Source of the DNA: Clostridiaceae bacterium
GTDB lineage: Bacteria > Bacillota > Clostridia > Lachnospirales > Lachnospiraceae
Reading direction: 5' to 3'
DNA length: 64,000 bases
NCBI GenBank assembly: GCA_910574345.1
Contig: CAJSZV010000005.1
Coordinates: forward strand, 124,001-188,000
The translations under genes were made by a program, and so were the position numbers. The stretch's first letter is position 1; the number at the start of each line of letters is the position of its first letter. A model generated the notes under the pieces. That model did no database searches, was not told the DNA's origin, and worked only from the letters and a program-made list of their open reading frames with translations. Positions 20,045 through 27,139 of this stretch are shown here, in pieces.

Positions 20045-20920
20045 CTAAAGAATATCCATGAACTGCCTGGCAGCCTGGGATATGGGAAGGCTTTCGTTGT
20101 AAGCCACTACCATATGGCGGGCAGGCAGTTCTTCTTTTAGCTGGAGAACAAACAGATTCTTGTCATCCTCCGGTATGCAGAAATCCGGCACAAAGGCGAT
20201 TCCCAGTCCGATCCGTGCCAGCTCAATGAGAAGGTCATTGCTGCTCAGTTCAATCTCAGGAACCAGATCCAGATGAGAGCGGTAAAACAGGGAGTGCAGA
20301 AATTCACTGGTGGTACTCTTCCGGTCCAGCATCAGAATGGGATATTCCTGGAGCTGCCTTAAGGAAAGCATCCTTCCCTCCAGCGCAAAGAATTCCCTGC
20401 TGGCCACGAACACGTCATGAAATTCATTAATTATCCGGGGGGTATGGGTGCCGGACAGGGCGGAATTCGGATAATTGATCACCACAAAATCCACCTGCCC
20501 CTGTTCCAGCAGCCCTGCGCACTGAATGGAAGTCTGGTTTGTGACTTTAATGTGTACATGGGGATACTCTTTGTGGAACCGGCTCAGATAAGGCACCAGA
20601 TAGTAGCGGAAAATCGTATCGCTGGCGCCGATGCGCAGCTGGCCGCCGTTTAAGGTATTGGCTTCCAGAAGCTGGTTCTCCCCCTGTTTAATCAGATTCA
20701 TGGCAGGTTCGATATGGCGGAAAAGAAGTTCCCCCTCCGGTGTCAGCTGGACTTTTTTCGTACTGCGGACAAAAAGAGTCTGGGCCAGTTTTTTTTCCAA
20801 TACCTTAATGGACTGACTGACTGCGGACTGGGAGATGAAGAGGTGCTTGGAGGCTTCGGAGAAGCTTAAGGTGGTGGCTACATAGTAGAATACTTTATAT
20901 AATTCATAATTAATGTCCAT
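20045..20920 (-). CDS. LysR-family transcriptional regulator
   Basis: 291 residues. N-terminal winged HTH (YKVFYYVATTLSFSEASKHLFISQSAVSQSIKVLE, residues about 6-40, shown here only as family hallmark SQSAVSQSIK) and a C-terminal periplasmic-binding-type effector domain. ATG 20920 has AAAGGA upstream on the minus strand; the longer open frame from 21037 would run through a structured repeat. It converges on the peptide transporter with one base between stops, and is divergent from the ATP-grasp cassette at a distance of 420 bases. Target unknown; either neighbour is possible. Confidence 0.88.
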   Translation of the reverse strand: MDINYELYKVFYYVATTLSFSEASKHLFISQSAVSQSIKVLEKKLAQTLFVRSTKKVQLTPEGELLFRHIEPAMNLIKQGENQLLEANTLNGGQLRIGASDTIFRYYLVPYLSRFHKEYPHVHIKVTNQTSIQCAGLLEQGQVDFVVINYPNSALSGTHTPRIINEFHDVFVASREFFALEGRMLSLRQLQEYPILMLDRKSTTSEFLHSLFYRSHLDLVPEIELSSNDLLIELARIGLGIAFVPDFCIPEDDKNLFVLQLKEELPARHMVVAYNESLPISQAARQFMDIL

Positions 20921-20963
20921 GAGCGAAGTCCTTTCTTTGACTGTAAATGAATGGTATGATGTT

Positions 20964-21119
20964 GGGGTCAAAAGGGTTTTGACCCCTTTGATACCGGATT
21001 GCTCCGCATTTTGTGCTGCCGCAATCCTCAAAAACATTCAAAATCCGCCCTAATCGGGCTGCTTTTTCATGTTTTTGGCGGATCTCAAGTTCAAAAATAC
21101 TCTTGCAAGCAAGCTTGCA
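20964..21119. repeat. Highly structured intergenic element (four successive inverted repeats)
   Basis: GGGGTCAAAA-GGG-TTTTGACCCC (20964-20986), GGATTGC/GCAATCC (20996-21027), ATCCGCC/GGCGGAT (21043-21083) and TGCAAGC/GCTTGCA (21104-21119) follow one another without an ORF. It lies between lysR and the cassette at 21343. The density of stems suggests a mobile intergenic repeat or a structured RNA; only one copy is seen in this window. Confidence 0.5.
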
Positions 21120-21235
21120 TCGGATTTTAGACCTTATGACCCTGGTATCATGGTATTGGAATGATGGTATCACACATGGACGGGACTTGTAAAGATATGG
21201 GGGATGAGAGTTGCGGACGGGACCTGGATATCCCA

Positions 21236-21264
21236 TTGACAAATGAAAAAAGATAAGTTATATT
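21236..21264 (+). promoter_or_regulatory. Promoter of the ATP-grasp cassette
   Basis: TTGACA (21236-21241), 17 bases, TATATT (21259-21264). The predicted start of transcription is near 21271, immediately before a terminator-like hairpin (21275-21307). Confidence 0.78.
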
Positions 21265-21274
21265 TGTAACAAGT

Positions 21275-21307
21275 AAAGGCGCTCATAGTATGTTTGAGCG
21301 CCTTTTT
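21275..21307 (+). terminator. Terminator-like hairpin at the very 5' end of the cassette transcript (possible attenuator)
   Basis: AAAGGCGCTCA (21275-21285) pairs perfectly with TGAGCGCCTTT (21295-21305) and ends in five T. It sits only about ten bases after the -10 box and 36 bases before the first gene, so it cannot serve an upstream gene on this strand other than by readthrough. It would halt most transcripts unless bypassed. Confidence 0.75.
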
Positions 21308-21342
21308 GAAAATTTAACTTAAGGGAGAAAGGACTGAGGGGT

Positions 21343-22656
21343 ATGTTTGAACTGGTGGATCACACGGAGAATATCAACCGGCTGCTTGCAAGATACGGGG
21401 TAAAGTTTGGAATTTATAAAAATCACGAATTCCATGAACAGCTGTTTCCCTTTGACCCTCTGCCGCGGGTAATATCGGCGGAGGAATTCGATTTCTTAAA
21501 TCGGGGACTGTCTCAGCGGGTGAATGCCCTGAATTTGTTTCTGGCCGATGTTTATTCGGAGAAGAAGATCATTAAGGATGGGGTAATCCCGGCAGATTTT
21601 GTCTATTCATCTAAAGGGTATCTGCCTCAGTGCGAGAAAATCGTGCCTCCGGGAAAGATTTACAGCCATATTTCAGGCATTGATCTGGTTCAGGGAAAGG
21701 ATAAGAACTGGTACATTCTGGAGGATAATCTGCGGATTCCCTCCGGGGCTTCCTACCCTATGATCGCAAGGGAACTGACAAGAAGAGCGGCTCCGGCCAC
21801 CTTTTCCAGGACCCGCATTGCAGACAATCGAAACTATGCCGTCATGCTGAAAGAAACCCTGGATTACGTGAATACAGGGGGAATCAATGTGGTGCTGACG
21901 CCCGGACGGTATAATGCGGCGTTTTTTGAACATTCCTATCTGGCGGAACGATCGGGGGCAGTCCTTGCCATGCCTCAGGATCTTCTGGTGGAGAACAACA
22001 AACTATATTATCGTCAGTATGGCGGCAGGAATCTGCAGGTGGGAGCTGTGTACCGGCGCCTTTCCGACGAATATCTGGATCCTCTGTGCTTTCTTCCTGA
22101 GTCTCTCATCGGAGTTCCGGGTATTATGAATGTATATCGAAGCGGCAATGTAGCCATCGTCAATGCGCCCGGCAACGGCGTGGCGGACGATAAAGGTATT
22201 TACTACTTTGTTCCTCATATGATAAAATACTATCTGGGTGAAGAGGCGATTCTTAAGAATGCACCTACCTATCTGGCCTTTTATGAAAAGGACCGGGAAT
22301 TTATTCTGGAGCATTTAGAACGGCTTGTGGTGAAGGATGTGTCGGAAGCAGGCGGTTACGGCGTTATATTCGGAAGAGACCTTACAAAAGAAAAATTAAG
22401 GGAACTGGCGGAAGTGATAAAGGCGGAGCCGAGAAGGTTTATCGCCCAGGAAGTCATTGACTTTATTGATCTTGGAATTGTGGAGGGGGATCATGAGGTG
22501 CCGAGAAAAGCCGACTTAAGGGCTTTTGTGCTGGCGGGAAAGGACACCAGAGTGTGGCCCAGCGGGCTTACCAGATTCTCCAGGAATCCGAATTCATTTG
22601 TTGTCAATTCATCACAGGGAGGAGGATTTAAGGACACATGGGTATTATCTCGATAG
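21343..22656 (+). CDS. Circularly permuted type-2 ATP-grasp protein
   Basis: 437 residues. Recognised by LSQRVNALNLFLADVY (about 55-70), the DLVQGKDKNWYILEDNLRIPSG-type block (about 112-133) and a C-terminal AFVLAGKDTRVWPSGLTRFSRNPNSFVVNSSQGGG-type ending, here abbreviated by RVWPSGLTRF and NSSQGGG. These proteins are predicted to form peptide-like bonds (amidoligases) and nearly always sit beside alpha-E and transglutaminase genes. The start has GGGAGAAAGG upstream. The last 19 bases overlap the alpha-E gene. No substrate is known. Confidence 0.9.
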   Translation: MFELVDHTENINRLLARYGVKFGIYKNHEFHEQLFPFDPLPRVISAEEFDFLNRGLSQRVNALNLFLADVYSEKKIIKDGVIPADFVYSSKGYLPQCEKIVPPGKIYSHISGIDLVQGKDKNWYILEDNLRIPSGASYPMIARELTRRAAPATFSRTRIADNRNYAVMLKETLDYVNTGGINVVLTPGRYNAAFFEHSYLAERSGAVLAMPQDLLVENNKLYYRQYGGRNLQVGAVYRRLSDEYLDPLCFLPESLIGVPGIMNVYRSGNVAIVNAPGNGVADDKGIYYFVPHMIKYYLGEEAILKNAPTYLAFYEKDREFILEHLERLVVKDVSEAGGYGVIFGRDLTKEKLRELAEVIKAEPRRFIAQEVIDFIDLGIVEGDHEVPRKADLRAFVLAGKDTRVWPSGLTRFSRNPNSFVVNSSQGGGFKDTWVLSR

Positions 22657-23321
22657 AAAAGGCGGACCGGTTATTTTGGCTTGGACGTTATGCGGAAAGG
22701 GTTCTTACGACTCTGGTGGCTTTCTTTGATTTTTATGATGAGATGATCGACGGAGATGAAAAGGCATACAGGACCTACTGCAAAAAGATTGCCATTCCTG
22801 ACGTTTACAAAAGCAAAGAGGATTTTCAGCAGAAGTACCTCTTTGACGGGCAGAATCCCGATTCCGTGATCAGCAACATGGAGAGGGCTTTTGACAATGC
22901 GGTAGTCATAAGAGGGGAACTGGGAACTTATACTCTGTCCTATATCCAGATGGCTCTGGATGTGCTGAAAGGGGAAGGCGGAAAGGCGGATGCCCCTGCC
23001 TATGATCTTCAGCAGGTCATAGACTACCTCAATGCTTTTTGGGGCTGTATGGATGACCAGACAGAGGATGAGGAGTGCCGCAATATTATTAAGTGCGGCA
23101 AATATCTGGAACGTCTGGATCTGTATATGCGTCTTGGTTATTCTGCCAAGGCCATAGACAAGGAATTCAGCAAATTTGAAAACCGCCTTCATCGCGTAAG
23201 GCTTCCATACCGCAGGGAGAATGAGGACAGGCTGAGAGAGATTATCAGTCTGGGAGACGGATGGAGAGAATATGAGAAAGAGGCCCTGGAGGCTTTGTGG
23301 AATTTGTTTGAGGTGATATGA
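22638..23321 (+). CDS. Alpha-E domain protein (DUF403)
   Basis: 227 residues, almost all helical. It opens with ISIEKADRLFWLGRYAERV, the hallmark of alpha-E proteins, and has repeated helices rich in Glu. GGAGG lies 13 bases before the ATG, within the ATP-grasp gene. Alpha-E proteins accompany circularly permuted ATP-grasps across bacteria, but their biochemical role is not established; partner or scaffold of the ligase is the usual inference. Confidence 0.9.
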   Translation: MGIISIEKADRLFWLGRYAERVLTTLVAFFDFYDEMIDGDEKAYRTYCKKIAIPDVYKSKEDFQQKYLFDGQNPDSVISNMERAFDNAVVIRGELGTYTLSYIQMALDVLKGEGGKADAPAYDLQQVIDYLNAFWGCMDDQTEDEECRNIIKCGKYLERLDLYMRLGYSAKAIDKEFSKFENRLHRVRLPYRRENEDRLREIISLGDGWREYEKEALEALWNLFEVI

Positions 23322-23322
23322 C

Positions 23323-24099
23323 TTGAAAAGACTGAGGTTTCATTATGAGATGGAACTTACGTTTGATGCTCCTGTAGCGGAACATCATTTCGCGTTCCGC
23401 TGTCTTCCCATGACGGAAGGCGGGCAGACATGCTATGGCCTTCAGTACGGCATTGAACCGTCAGGACTGCTCTGTGAGATCACTGACGGGTTCGGCAACC
23501 GGATGTGTACAGGCGAGGCTCTTGACCCTCACGACAGTCTGAACCTGCGGGCGGAGGGAACGGTTTATGTGGACAGGTCCGAGGCAGTGAGGGAAGAGCT
23601 TCATCCTCTGTTTTTATTTCCGTCCGCCTACACCGCAGCGGATGAGTCTCTGAGAGAGTATCTGAGAGAGTGCCGGCTTTTGGAGGGGAAGGACGGGAGA
23701 AGGAATCTCCCTTTTTGTCTTATGGACTGCCTCTTCCGGGATTTCTCTTATGTACCGGGAAAGACCGATATTCATACCACGGCGGCTCAGGCATGGGCGG
23801 GAAGACAGGGCGTGTGTCAGGATTATGCTCATATTTTCGTGACTCTGTGCCGTCTGGCCGGGTATCCTGCCAGATATGTGGCAGGCATGATGGTAGGCGA
23901 GGGAGCCACCCATGCCTGGGCGGAGGTCTATATAGACGGAGCATGGATGGGATTTGACCCTACTCATAACCGTCTGACAGATGATACGTATATTAAGTTG
24001 TCCCATGGAAGGGATTTTGGCGACTGTACCATTGACAGAGGATGCTTTAAAGGGTTTGCTTCCCAAAGACAGAATATCTATGTAAAGGTAGAGGACTAG
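23323..24099 (+). CDS. Transglutaminase-like cysteine protease/ligase
   Basis: 258 residues from a TTG start behind GAGGTGA. N-terminal beta domain (1-110) and a transglutaminase-like core with a full catalytic triad: Cys165 in GVCQDYAH, His197 in THAWAEV, Asp212 in GFDPTHN. This is the third member of the ATP-grasp/alpha-E/transglutaminase set and probably hydrolyses or transfers the product of the ligase. No signal peptide, so cytoplasmic. One base separates it from the next gene. Confidence 0.9.
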   Translation: MKRLRFHYEMELTFDAPVAEHHFAFRCLPMTEGGQTCYGLQYGIEPSGLLCEITDGFGNRMCTGEALDPHDSLNLRAEGTVYVDRSEAVREELHPLFLFPSAYTAADESLREYLRECRLLEGKDGRRNLPFCLMDCLFRDFSYVPGKTDIHTTAAQAWAGRQGVCQDYAHIFVTLCRLAGYPARYVAGMMVGEGATHAWAEVYIDGAWMGFDPTHNRLTDDTYIKLSHGRDFGDCTIDRGCFKGFASQRQNIYVKVED

Positions 24100-24100
24100 T

Positions 24101-25039
24101 ATGATAAAAACAGTGGTTTCCGTAGGACTTCCAGTAGATGAGAAGCTTCGAATCCGCAAGCAGACCATGGAAGGGCCGGAGGCGAAGGGTGAGAAGAAGA
24201 GAATCTGTATTGTGACAGGAACGCACGGCGATGAACTGGAAGGACAGTATGTCTGTTATGAGCTTGGCCGGAGGCTGAAAGAACAAAAAGAACATTTAAA
24301 AGGGATTGTGGATATTTACCCGGCCCTGAATCCTTTGGGAGTGGACTCCATAACCAGGGGCATTCCCATGTTTGATCTGGATATGAACCGTATATTTCCG
24401 GGGAACGAAGACGGGCCTGTTCCGGAGTATGTGGCTTCCAGGATCATAGAAGATATAAAGGGGGCGGATCTGTGTATCGACATTCATGCCAGCAACATCT
24501 TTCTTCGGGAGATACCTCAGGTGCGCATAAGTGAGATGACGGCAAAAGCTCTCCTCCCCTATGCAAAGAAGCTGAATATTGATTATGTGTGGATTCATGG
24601 AGCGGCCACGGTTCTGGAAGCGACTCTGGCTCACAGCCTCAACATGATCGGGGTGCCGACCCTGGTGGTGGAGATGGGAGTAGGTATGAGAATTACCCTT
24701 GAGTACGGCAGGCAGCTGGCGGACGGAATCTTCTGCCTGATGAAGGAACTGGGAATCTGGGACGGAGATGTAATAAGGCCTAAGAAGCCCATTATCTCAA
24801 CGGATGGACAGGTAGGATTTGTCAATGCCAATCATTCCGGAATTTTTATTCCCCATGTGGATCACTGGGAGAGCATCAGGAAGGGCGAGACCATTGGCGA
24901 GATCTTAAATCCTCTGGAAGGAAAGGTGGAGGAGAACCTCTATTCTCCCTGTGACGGTATGGTGTTTACTCTGAGAGAGTATCCCATTGTCAACAGCGGT
25001 TCCCTTATTGCCAGGGTGCTGGGAGGTGAATTCCATTGA
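24101..25039 (+). CDS. M14/AstE-AspA-type zinc deacylase, metal site intact
   Basis: 312 residues. Zinc ligands of the succinylglutamate desuccinylase/aspartoacylase family are in place: His42 and Glu45 in GTHGDE, and His129 in DIHAS. DLDMNRIFPG (about 90) carries the substrate-binding Asn-Arg. A C-terminal barrel-like domain (about 230-312) resembles a lipoyl-like swivelling fold. These enzymes remove acyl or amino-acyl groups from N-acylated amino acids or peptides. Overlaps the next gene by four bases (TTGA). Confidence 0.87.
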   Translation: MIKTVVSVGLPVDEKLRIRKQTMEGPEAKGEKKRICIVTGTHGDELEGQYVCYELGRRLKEQKEHLKGIVDIYPALNPLGVDSITRGIPMFDLDMNRIFPGNEDGPVPEYVASRIIEDIKGADLCIDIHASNIFLREIPQVRISEMTAKALLPYAKKLNIDYVWIHGAATVLEATLAHSLNMIGVPTLVVEMGVGMRITLEYGRQLADGIFCLMKELGIWDGDVIRPKKPIISTDGQVGFVNANHSGIFIPHVDHWESIRKGETIGEILNPLEGKVEENLYSPCDGMVFTLREYPIVNSGSLIARVLGGEFH

Positions 25040-25971
25040 GAAAAGAAGTGATTTATCAGCTTGGCAATACATACCGGGACGATCTGAGGATCTACGGATA
25101 CCATTTTGGAAAAGGGGAGAAATCTGCATGCATCGTAGGCTCCATGCGGGGCAATGAGGTACAGCAGATGTATGTGTGCTCCCAGCTTGTAAAGGCTTTA
25201 AAGGAACTGGAAGGGCATGGAGGCTTTGTGCCGGGCAGCGAGATCTTAGTAATCCCTTCTGTGAATCATTTTTCCATGAACATCGGCAAAAGGTTCTGGG
25301 CAGTGGATAATACGGATATCAACCGCATGTTCCCCGGATATGACCAGGGAGAGACCACACAGCGAATCGCAGCCGGAGTGTTTGATGTGGTTCAGCATTA
25401 CAGCTGCGGCATCCAGTTTACCAGTTTCTATATGCCGGGAGATTTTATCCCTCATGTGCGCATGATGGAGACTGGATTCCAGAAACCCAGTCTGGCCAAT
25501 CTGTTCGGCCTTCCCTATGTGGTGATACGAAAGCCAAGACCAGTGGATACCACCACGCTTAACTATAACTGGCAGATCTGGGATACCAATGCTTTTTCTG
25601 TCTACACCAACGCCACGGACCGGATCGACCAGGTATCCGCAGGACAGGCGGTGGCTTCTGTGCTCCGGTTTCTGACGAGAATGGGATTTCTGCGCTACAC
25701 CAGTCACAGCGGCTATATTGCTACGGTGGTGAGGGAGGACGATTTGAAGAATGTAAAGTCCGACGCAGCGGGAATCTACAGGCGTCTTGTGGAGCCGGGC
25801 CAGGAAGTGAAGAAAGGGGAAGTGCTGGCCGAAGTTTTAGATCCTCATGAGGGGGATGTGGTGAGCCGTATCCTGTCGCCAGAGAGAGGAATTATATTCT
25901 TCGCTTACGCTCAGCCTCTGGTGATGGAGAGGGCCATTATCTTTAAGATCATAAAAAGGCTGCATCAATAG
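25036..25971 (+). CDS. M14/AstE-type paralogue with metal ligands lost (likely pseudoenzyme)
   Basis: 311 residues, same fold and layout as its neighbour, including DINRMFPG. The two histidine ligands are replaced: HGDE reads RGNE (Arg38, Glu41) and DIHAS reads GIQFTS (Gln127). It starts at TTG overlapping the stop of the active paralogue, so the pair are probably made in equal amounts and may form a heterodimer. Alternatively it may bind a ligand without cutting it. Confidence in the family is high, in inactivity moderate. Confidence 0.83.
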   Translation: MRKEVIYQLGNTYRDDLRIYGYHFGKGEKSACIVGSMRGNEVQQMYVCSQLVKALKELEGHGGFVPGSEILVIPSVNHFSMNIGKRFWAVDNTDINRMFPGYDQGETTQRIAAGVFDVVQHYSCGIQFTSFYMPGDFIPHVRMMETGFQKPSLANLFGLPYVVIRKPRPVDTTTLNYNWQIWDTNAFSVYTNATDRIDQVSAGQAVASVLRFLTRMGFLRYTSHSGYIATVVREDDLKNVKSDAAGIYRRLVEPGQEVKKGEVLAEVLDPHEGDVVSRILSPERGIIFFAYAQPLVMERAIIFKIIKRLHQ

Positions 25972-25983
25972 AAGGAGAAAGAA

Positions 25984-26502
25984 ATGCAGGAAGATGTATT
26001 TAAGATGTATCTTGACGAGGTTGAGGGTATAGAAAGTTTAAGCCCTGATGAGAACCGTATGCTGGCGGAGAAGCTGTCCGCGGGTCATGAGTCAGTAAAA
26101 GACCGGCTGATTGAGGGGAACCTTCGGACGGTTCTTTTGATGGTTCAGGATTATCTGGGAAGAGGCGTCCTGGCCGGTGATTTGGTTCAGGAAGCCAATA
26201 TGGCTCTGGTGGTGGCAGTCAGGGAGTACAGATCTGAACTTGGCGGTTTTGATGAGTTTTTAGAGGAACAGGTGAGAAAAGCCCTTCTGGCCGCCGTGGA
26301 GGAACAGTCCAGGGAAGAGAAGACTGCCGAAAAAATGGTTGACCGGGTCAACACATTAAAGGATCTTTCCAGAGACATGGCGGAAGAACTGGGGCGGGAA
26401 GCCACAGTGGAAGAATTGGCCCGGCGGATGGAACTGACTGCAGATGAGATCAGGGATATTATGAAGATGACCTTAGATGCCATGAGCGTCATGGGGGAAT
26501 AA
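25984..26502 (+). CDS. Sigma-70-like protein without region 4
   Basis: 172 residues. Region 1.2-like MYLDEVEGIESLSPDENRMLAEKL (start of the protein), region 2.1-2.2-like LIEGNLRTVLLMVQDYLGRGVLAGDLVQEANMALVVAV (about 43-80; core DLVQEANMAL) and a region 3-like ELGREATVEELARRM (about 137-151). The -10-recognition helix of region 2.4 is not recognisable and region 4 is absent; the protein ends after region 3. It may bind core RNA polymerase or an anti-sigma partner rather than act as a normal sigma factor. It lies 12 bases after the M14 pair, in the same operon. Confidence 0.75.
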   Translation: MQEDVFKMYLDEVEGIESLSPDENRMLAEKLSAGHESVKDRLIEGNLRTVLLMVQDYLGRGVLAGDLVQEANMALVVAVREYRSELGGFDEFLEEQVRKALLAAVEEQSREEKTAEKMVDRVNTLKDLSRDMAEELGREATVEELARRMELTADEIRDIMKMTLDAMSVMGE

Positions 26503-26515
26503 AAGAGGTGAACAG

Positions 26516-27139
26516 ATGAAACTATATTTAATACGCCATGGACAGACAGACTGGAATGTGGCGGGAAAAATTCAGGGAAGTACGGATATTCCCCTGAATG
26601 ATATGGGAAAGCGTCAGGCCGCCTGTCTGGCGGAGGGGATGGCAGGAAGGCCTGTGACAAAGGTTTTCAGCAGCTGTCTTTCAAGGGCATATGAGACGGC
26701 AAGAGCCATCGGCAGCAGCCAGCATGTGGAAGTGATTAAGGTTCATGGCCTGGAGGAAGTGGGATACGGGGTGTGGGAAGGCATGACCATGGAGGAGATC
26801 GAAAAAAAATATCCGGAAGAGCTGAACCAGTGGTACTGCAGTCCTGTAGATGTGGCTCCGCCGGAGGGCGAGAGTCAGGCTCAGATCTATGACAGGTGCA
26901 AAAAAGCGCTGGAGATCATTCTGTCCCAGGCGGAAAGCGGGGATGCGGCTGTGGTGTCTCACGGCGCCACCACAGTATTCTTGCTGGAGATTCTTCTGCA
27001 GGACGATTCCAGAGAGGAAGAAGACGACATTATTGTGGGCAATGCCAGCATCTCTACCGTTGAATATGATGAGAAGACGAGGAAGTTCACGTTGCTTGAA
27101 CTCAATGACAGGGAACATCTGAAAGGCCTTGAGCAGTGA
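26516..27139 (+). CDS. Histidine phosphatase (phosphoglycerate-mutase superfamily)
   Basis: 207 residues. The phospho-histidine motif LIRHGQTDWN is at residues 4-13, a second Arg in SSCLSRAYETA, an acid residue in EEVGYGVWEG and the second His in VSHGATT (about 146). Members dephosphorylate small metabolites such as alpha-ribazole phosphate or sugar phosphates; the substrate cannot be read from sequence. Last gene of the cassette. Its stop abuts the stop of the convergent kinase gene with no base between. Confidence 0.88.
   Translation: MKLYLIRHGQTDWNVAGKIQGSTDIPLNDMGKRQAACLAEGMAGRPVTKVFSSCLSRAYETARAIGSSQHVEVIKVHGLEEVGYGVWEGMTMEEIEKKYPEELNQWYCSPVDVAPPEGESQAQIYDRCKKALEIILSQAESGDAAVVSHGATTVFLLEILLQDDSREEEDDIIVGNASISTVEYDEKTRKFTLLELNDREHLKGLEQ

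What the first reader, a model, noticed from the sequence alone, without database searches (positions are those of the whole stretch)
21236..27139. Seven-gene cassette combining ATP-grasp, alpha-E, transglutaminase, paired M14 deacylases, a sigma-like fragment and a phosphatase
Seen: seven genes on one strand with gaps of 13 bases or less or overlaps. Established: circularly permuted ATP-grasp, alpha-E and transglutaminase genes co-occur and are predicted peptide-bond systems of unknown product. New here is the addition of an M14 pair (one apparently dead), a sigma-70-like protein without region 4 and a histidine phosphatase. Inference: a small peptide or amide conjugate is built by the ligase, trimmed by the transglutaminase-like and M14 proteins, and perhaps sensed by the sigma-like protein. 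I know of no description of this exact set.
Basis: partly seen in the sequence, partly recalled or inferred. Interest (0 to 1): 0.75.

Follow-up and report, generated by a model that had tools for sequence, protein, structure and literature searches.

The report
Peptide-ligase operon with pseudoenzyme pair
In gut Clostridia a set of genes predicted to join small molecules by amide bonds travels with a matched pair of metal hydrolases, one intact and one stripped of its metal-binding residues yet strongly conserved, which suggests a make-and-break cycle whose product is still unknown.

Summary
Genes 1-5 (circularly permuted ATP-grasp, alpha-E, transglutaminase-like, M14 hydrolase, M14-like) are a conserved operon: all five, intact and in order, at 38 of 43 alpha-E loci from other Lachnospiraceae genera; two more are cut by contig ends, two have broken genes, one lacks the M14 pair. 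It also occurs in other families. The sigma-like gene and phosphatase follow in 0 of the 43 (33 had 600 nt or more to look at). They recur together without the operon, near purL.

M14a keeps its zinc and catalytic residues in every informative row. M14b has lost both zinc histidines and the catalytic glutamate, yet is strongly conserved: a conserved pseudoenzyme. Proteasome-family proteins (these include Anbu, the fourth gene of the Proteobacterial operon) are missing from 55 of 57 genomes tested. The M14 pair also lives without the ligase genes, often beside purL.

The product is unknown.

The parts
21236..21264 (+). promoter-like site TTGACA-17-TATATT
   Evidence: 11 of 12 consensus matches; same arrangement in front of most operons
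21275..21310 (+). promoter-proximal terminator-like hairpin (11 pairs, loop 9) with T-run
   Evidence: fold, comparison with controls, pair counts, best match of its model in G000
21343..22656 (+). gene 1, circularly permuted ATP-grasp ligase (ATPg)
   Evidence: PF14403 453.9 bits; related solved structure 3n6x
22638..23321 (+). gene 2, short alpha-E protein (aE)
   Evidence: PF04168 65.5 bits; overlaps gene 1 by 19 nt as in 48 of 51 loci
23323..24099 (+). gene 3, transglutaminase-like cysteine enzyme (TG)
   Evidence: PF01841 69.3 bits; Cys165, His197, Asp212 in 56 of 56 rows
24101..25039 (+). gene 4, M14 AspA/AstE-type hydrolase, active site intact (M14a)
   Evidence: PF24827 77.8 bits; H42, E45, H129, E191
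25036..25971 (+). gene 5, M14 pseudoenzyme (M14b)
   Evidence: PF24827 36.0 bits; zinc ligands and catalytic Glu replaced but 63 invariant columns in 23 rows
25984..26502 (+). gene 6, sigma-70-like protein without region 4: neighbour, not a member
26516..27139 (+). gene 7, histidine phosphatase: neighbour, not a member
20045..20923 (-). divergent LysR-type regulator; possible regulator, present in only some related loci
   Evidence: PF03466 123.3 bits; neighbours

Best explanation
Genes 1-5 are one operon. Shown: the five genes are conserved in order across many Clostridia; gene 4 keeps an intact M14 active site; gene 5 is a conserved M14 pseudoenzyme nearly always next to gene 4; a terminator-like hairpin sits right behind the promoter of most such operons. 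Inferred: ATPg with alpha-E activates a carboxylate with ATP and makes a small peptide or N-acyl amino acid amide. The transglutaminase-like cysteine enzyme transfers or cleaves it. M14a and M14b form a heteromer in which M14a hydrolyses the amide and M14b holds or senses the substrate. The pair takes the place that the Ntn-hydrolase Anbu has in Proteobacteria. The hairpin keeps the operon low until an unknown factor lets polymerase through; nitrogen supply is a plausible signal because a related Burkholderia gene cluster depends on NtrC. The sigma-like gene and phosphatase are neighbours that belong to a purL locus.
For: ATPg-aE-TG-M14a-M14b intact at 38 of 43 family loci, complete at 4 of 5 loci from other families of the class (the fifth, L203, leaves its contig early in M14a, and that genome has an M14 pair on another contig), and all five also at L222, L223 and L225. 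alpha-E and TG share one frame in L203 and, by coordinates, in L224. By genome in the family sample: 44 with alpha-E and strong M14b, 1 alpha-E only, 36 M14b only, 267 neither. Motifs. M14a next to M14b in 34 of 35 stand-alone loci. PF00227 matched in 2 of 57 genomes, neither on the operon's contig. Leader: 38 of 55 operons, 14 of 303 control genes, 0-1 of 55 in each of five shuffles. Burkholderia I35_5080-83 fall 6.0- to 9.4-fold in an ntrC mutant (PMC5491218, passages).
Against: 36 of 80 family genomes with strong M14b lack alpha-E, so the pair has a use without the ligase in the same cell. L150 has ATPg-aE-TG without M14 genes, and so have the Bacillota loci L220, L221, L224 and L226. No neighbour names a substrate. 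No heteromer was modelled (structure tool unavailable) or measured. In Yersinia no specific interaction among the Anbu-operon proteins was detected (PMC6376114, passages). 17 of 55 operon leaders do not meet the promoter-hairpin rule, 7 of them showing no such hairpin at all.
Confidence: 0.45

Rival explanations
1. The M14 pair acts on a compound unrelated to the ligase product (perhaps one linked to purine or glutamine metabolism); the five genes share a promoter because they answer the same nutrient signal, not because they act on one molecule.
For: The pair stands alone in 36 of 80 family genomes with it and lies within 200 nt upstream of purL in 16 of 35 stand-alone loci.
Against: Fixed five-gene order across families. 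H42 or R97 of M14a is changed in 14 of 33 stand-alone rows but 0 of 56 operon rows, though too few independent pairs exist for a test.
Confidence: 0.25
2. A protein-tagging system: the ligase attaches a residue or small peptide to proteins and the M14 pair removes it, as a deconjugase would.
For: A tagging role has been proposed for the Anbu operon (PMC6376114, passages).
Against: No tag protein or conjugation target was found here; AspA/AstE-type M14 enzymes with known function act on small N-acyl amino acids (recalled).
Confidence: 0.12
3. The first reader's seven-gene cassette, with the sigma-like protein sensing the product and the phosphatase taking part.
For: Tight spacing in the window and in four close relatives; the M14 pair of G301 (L180) is also followed by a sigma-like gene.
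Against: 0 of 43 family loci (33 with enough sequence); sigma and phosphatase occur together without the operon.
Confidence: 0.06
4. The leader hairpin is not an attenuator but a 5' mRNA stabiliser, or the end of a separate small RNA.
For: It begins about 10 nt after the -10 box, which leaves little RNA for an antiterminator in front of it.
Against: A T-run follows the stem as in intrinsic terminators, but the search required one, so this is weak.
Confidence: 0.3

Closest known systems
Anbu operon (ATP-grasp, alpha-E, transglutaminase, Anbu); Iyer et al. 2009, known here only through PMC6376114 and PMC5666114
   Same: First three kinds of gene; an amide hydrolase accompanies them
   Different: Anbu absent; an M14 hydrolase and an M14 pseudoenzyme follow TG; alpha-E is short (219-233 aa at 42 family loci, against 323 aa in L222); promoter-proximal hairpin; 19-nt overlap of genes 1 and 2 in 48 of 51 loci
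AspA/AstE-type M14 deacylases (PF24827), such as DoeB (6twl) and Mlr6093 (2qj8)
   Same: M14a has the HxxE, H and E residues and the NRxFPG motif; both M14 proteins match these structures by sequence
   Different: 57.0 bits against the DoeB cut-off of 402.7; encoded with a degenerate partner
Protease pairs of an active and a pseudo-subunit, such as mitochondrial processing peptidase (recalled, not tested)
   Same: Intact and degenerate paralogues act together
   Different: Other enzyme family; a complex is not shown here
Bacillus subtilis pyrG attenuation, with a terminator at the very 5' end of the RNA (recalled)
   Same: Terminator-like hairpin close to the transcription start
   Different: Signal and mechanism unknown here

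Membership tests
ATP-grasp/alpha-E/transglutaminase amidoligase system | circularly permuted ATP-grasp protein | tested here: met
   453.9 bits, cut-off 32
ATP-grasp/alpha-E/transglutaminase amidoligase system | alpha-E protein | tested here: met
   65.5 bits, cut-off 20.8, but only positions 6-165 of 294
ATP-grasp/alpha-E/transglutaminase amidoligase system | transglutaminase-like protein with Cys-His-Asp | tested here: met
   69.3 bits; triad in 56 of 56 rows
ATP-grasp/alpha-E/transglutaminase amidoligase system | amide ligase activity | not testable with these tools
   needs biochemistry
Anbu operon | Anbu (proteasome-family Ntn-hydrolase) in the operon | tested here: not met
   PF00227 in 2 of 57 genomes, one over the cut-off, neither on the operon's contig
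AspA/AstE M14 deacylase (M14a) | zinc ligands H, E, H and catalytic E | tested here: met
   present in every informative row: 57, 57, 56 and 56 of 60, the rest gaps; 57 of 57 informative operon rows
AspA/AstE M14 deacylase (M14b) | zinc ligands H, E, H and catalytic E | tested here: not met
   first His is R in 58 of 59 informative rows; second His position is A, T, P, S, G or V in 59; catalytic Glu position is Y in 57 of 58 operon rows; the domain itself matches, 36.0 bits, cut-off 25
DoeB (TIGR02994) | equivalog cut-off | tested here: not met
   57.0 bits against 402.7
sigma-70 factor (gene 6) | both region 2 and region 4 | tested here: not met
   region 2 29.1 bits, cut-off 24; region 4 13.4 bits, cut-off 24.1
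alpha-ribazole phosphatase CobC (gene 7) | TIGR03162 cut-off | tested here: not met
   135.8 bits against 162.9

The most novel reading that the evidence does not exclude
A clostridial counterpart of the Anbu system: a reversible amide-conjugation cycle in which a ligase (ATPg with short alpha-E) is balanced by a heteromeric M14 hydrolase whose pseudo-subunit lost first its catalytic glutamate and later its zinc ligands, while the whole operon is gated by a terminator within about 50 nt of the transcription start, which calls for an unknown antitermination factor. Lineages that lost the ligase kept the hydrolase, perhaps as consumers of a compound made by their neighbours.
Probability: 0.25. 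Interest if true: 0.8.

Novelty: new variant of a known kind. Interest (0 to 1): 0.62.

Why it matters
The ATP-grasp/alpha-E/transglutaminase system was described in 2009 (cited in PMC6376114 and PMC5666114), and the passages I read name neither a product nor a proven Anbu substrate. A lineage in which an unrelated amide hydrolase of a mechanistically well-understood class stands where Anbu stood gives an independent handle: what M14a cuts should show what the ligase makes. The pair is also a clean case of a pseudoenzyme kept across a large bacterial group, with relatives (L222, L223) that look part-way to degeneration. The promoter-proximal hairpin makes a direct prediction, testable by RNA-seq, that expression is set at termination.

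Tried and rejected
Seven-gene unit: rejected for genes 6 and 7. M14b as a copy decaying in one genome: rejected, since the same losses and strong conservation hold across the rows examined. M14 pair tied only to the ligase: rejected. Defence system: PADLOC gave only one weak match (gene 6 to MzaA) and nothing for the other six. Clostridiales-1 RNA as part of the system: at none of the eight other loci scanned. LysR as an obligate partner: found near the M14 pair in only some loci. Changed M14a residues as proof of dependence on the ligase: 14 of 33 against 0 of 56, but only 3 independent pairs on well-supported branches, no significance. Plasmid search with alpha-E: one Paenibacillus record, without M14 genes nearby. 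Structure prediction of M14b and alpha-E never ran. Iyer et al. 2009, the founding paper, is not held, so an M14 link could be mentioned there.

Limits of the leader test: hairpins were sought by energy and T-run, so the pair counts lean towards the structure. The independent evidence is position behind the promoter compared with controls. 14 of the 55 leaders are from the window's own genus (11 of these 14 positive); 24 of 36 other family leaders and 3 of 5 class leaders are positive. Start codons were chosen by script. Of 49 hairpins found I put 39 into alignment A4 and left out ten by eye, before the count: genus near-duplicates and hairpins of odd shape or with a mismatch. That choice favours clean pairing.
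Full report
OBSERVATION. The genome is G000, 5.6 Mb in 106 contigs. Four close loci come from records named Hungatella, a Lachnospiraceae genus.

WHAT BELONGS TOGETHER: GENUS. A search with the alpha-E protein matched 17 of 61 genomes (G000 and 16 others, all in the window's genus). The 16 other neighbourhoods were fetched and compared. Eleven hold genes 1-5 in order (L019-L026, L028, L032, L034); in L020 ATPg is split by a frameshift and in L026 its start lies beyond the contig. Four are cut by contig ends (L027, where ATPg is also split, L029, L030, L031). L033 keeps only alpha-E, M14b, sigma and phosphatase. L023, L027, L028 and L029 carry an extra P-loop protein between genes 3 and 4 (Pfam AAA_18 below its cut-off).

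WHAT BELONGS TOGETHER: FAMILY AND BEYOND. With the Pfam alpha-E model 45 of 348 family genomes match, in 44 of 333 genera. I fetched 43 of the 45 loci (all but G000 and G014). 38 hold the five genes intact and in order; L138 and L140 are cut by contig ends; L169 and L176 hold all five with one or more broken; L150 has ATPg-aE-TG and no M14 gene. In the class sample 7 of 291 genomes have alpha-E, five of them from other families: four loci are complete, and L203 leaves its contig early in M14a and has alpha-E and TG in one frame. In the phylum sample 9 of 348 match, six of them not seen before: L225 has short alpha-E and all five genes; L222 and L223 have long alpha-E and two M14 genes; L220, L221 and L224 have no M14 gene in the stretch fetched. 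In L224 the 634-aa frame that matches alpha-E also matches TG, a second fusion.

SIGMA AND PHOSPHATASE. They follow M14b in the window, L019-L022 and L033, that is 6 of 17 genus loci (13 with 600 nt or more beyond M14b), and in 0 of 43 family loci (33 with 600 nt or more). The short sigma-like protein is found in 25 of 26 genus genomes, 18 as one piece and 7 as two pieces; G008 shows only longer sigma factors. In G009, G010 and G024, which showed no alpha-E or M14b, sigma and phosphatase are adjacent. purL (TIGR01857, 1801 and 1789 bits for two examples) lies just downstream of the phosphatase in L019, L020, L022, L033, L077, L079 and L081, and directly after sigma in L083, L084, L085 and L088. 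In the window itself purL is not present. In G301 (L180) sigma follows an M14 pair that has no ligase genes. I therefore take genes 6 and 7 as neighbours.

THE M14 PAIR. M14a has H42, E45, H129 and E191 in every informative row of 60 (56-57 rows, the rest gaps). M14b has R for the first histidine in 58 of 59, keeps the glutamate in 59 of 59, never has the second histidine (A, T, P, S, G or V in 59), and has Y at the catalytic glutamate in 57 of 58 operon rows; 23 diverse M14b rows share 63 invariant columns. The second M14 protein of L222 and L223 shares the M14b signature (RMFPGYDxGETTQRIAD), still has H, E and H, but not the catalytic glutamate. I read this as stepwise loss; it rests on two loci. 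M14b (profile A1) matches 91 of 348 family genomes, 80 strongly (E below 1e-100): 44 with alpha-E and 36 without; G317 (L150) is the one alpha-E genome without a strong match. In the class sample 15 of 291 match, 10 strongly, among them all 7 alpha-E genomes. I fetched 35 stand-alone loci: 26 of the 36 genomes without alpha-E, and 9 second copies. M14a and M14b are adjacent in 34; L219 shows M14b alone; L181 has an 81-aa alpha-E remnant in front. purL lies within 4 kb downstream in 22 of 35 and within 200 nt in 16. A LysR gene related to the window's is divergent next to M14a in four (L180, L188, L189, L208), and a DEAD_2-type helicase lies upstream in six.

HISTORY. A tree of side-by-side M14a and M14b alignments (93 rows) puts 36 operon rows, those of other families among them, on one side, and on the other the stand-alone clades and a second operon group that holds the window; the operon/stand-alone label needs 5 changes. 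L180, L184, L185 and L187 (stand-alone) and L181 (alpha-E remnant) lie in or beside operon groups, some on branches of only 82-84% support. L182, L183 (weakly) and L187 still have a promoter-hairpin leader. Loss of the ligase genes with the pair retained is the simplest reading; the tree is unrooted and does not exclude gains. H42 or R97 of M14a is changed in 14 of 33 stand-alone rows and 0 of 56 operon rows, but independent contrasts are too few for a test.

LEADER. In the window a promoter-like site (TTGACA-17-TATATT, 21236-21264) is followed 10 nt on by an 11-pair hairpin with a T-run, which ends 37 nt before gene 1. One rule was applied to all: promoter at least 9 of 12, hairpin of -9 kcal/mol or better with T-run, within 32 nt of the -10 box, at least 25 nt before the start codon. 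Positive are 38 of 55 operons (37 at -14 kcal/mol or better), 14 of 303 other genes of the same loci with at least 150 nt upstream (10 at that level), 0-1 of 55 in each of five shuffles, and 3 of 34 stand-alone M14a genes. 48 of 55 operons have such a hairpin whether or not a promoter was recognised, against 132 of 303 controls and 13-22 of 55 in shuffles. In 39 of 49 aligned hairpins (ten left out by eye) the stem AAAGGCGYTC...GARCGCCTTT is paired in 95.8% of cells, with double changes in 8 of 11 pairs; as hairpins were chosen by folding, this adds less than it seems. The model's best match in G000 (34.4 bits) and in G022 is the operon leader; seven weaker matches in G000 look like ordinary hairpins and were not examined. 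Rfam gave no match there.

OTHER TRAITS. Genes 1 and 2 overlap by exactly 19 nt in 48 of 51 measured loci. ATPg is highly conserved (192 of 437 positions at least 97% the same in 53 rows), alpha-E is not (26 of 227 in 59 rows). Proteasome-family proteins were not found in 55 of 57 genomes; G396 has one over the cut-off and G532 a weak match, both on other contigs.

LITERATURE. The Anbu operon is given as ATP-grasp, alphaE, transglutaminase and Anbu, with no peptidase or amidase activity detected for Anbu (PMC6376114; passages; also PMC5666114, passages). A related Burkholderia cluster depends on NtrC (PMC5491218; passages), and the domains track urea metabolism in marine metagenomes (PMC3597751; passages). 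Searches for the five-gene set or for an aspartoacylase link found no description (listings only, of open-licence papers). Iyer et al. 2009 is not held.

VERDICT. A new variant of a known, uncharacterised system, with a clear route to a test. Which bond is made and cut remains inference.

Noticed in passing
window 20989-21150, - strand: Clostridiales-1 RNA (RF01699, 123.3 bits, gathering 48) between the LysR gene and the operon; at none of the eight other loci scanned.
   Followed up: partly
window 25984-26502; L069-L095: A sigma-70-like protein with regions 2 and 3 but no region 4, found in 25 of 26 genus genomes, in several next to purL.
   Followed up: partly
L186, L190, L193-L195, L197, L199, L207, L209, L212-L218: M14 pair within 200 nt upstream of purL in 16 of 35 stand-alone loci: an unexplained link of an amidohydrolase pair to purine synthesis.
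   Followed up: partly
L033 / L096 (G013): Reduced locus: alpha-E and a diverged M14b kept between LysR and sigma-phosphatase-purL, while TG and M14a are missing there and no ATPg was found in the genome.
   Followed up: partly
L023, L027-L029: A P-loop kinase-like protein of 214-235 aa between TG and M14a in one subclade of the genus (in L028 it reads as two frames).
   Followed up: no
window 22638-22656: Exactly 19-nt overlap of the ATPg and alpha-E reading frames, the same in 48 of 51 loci.
   Followed up: partly
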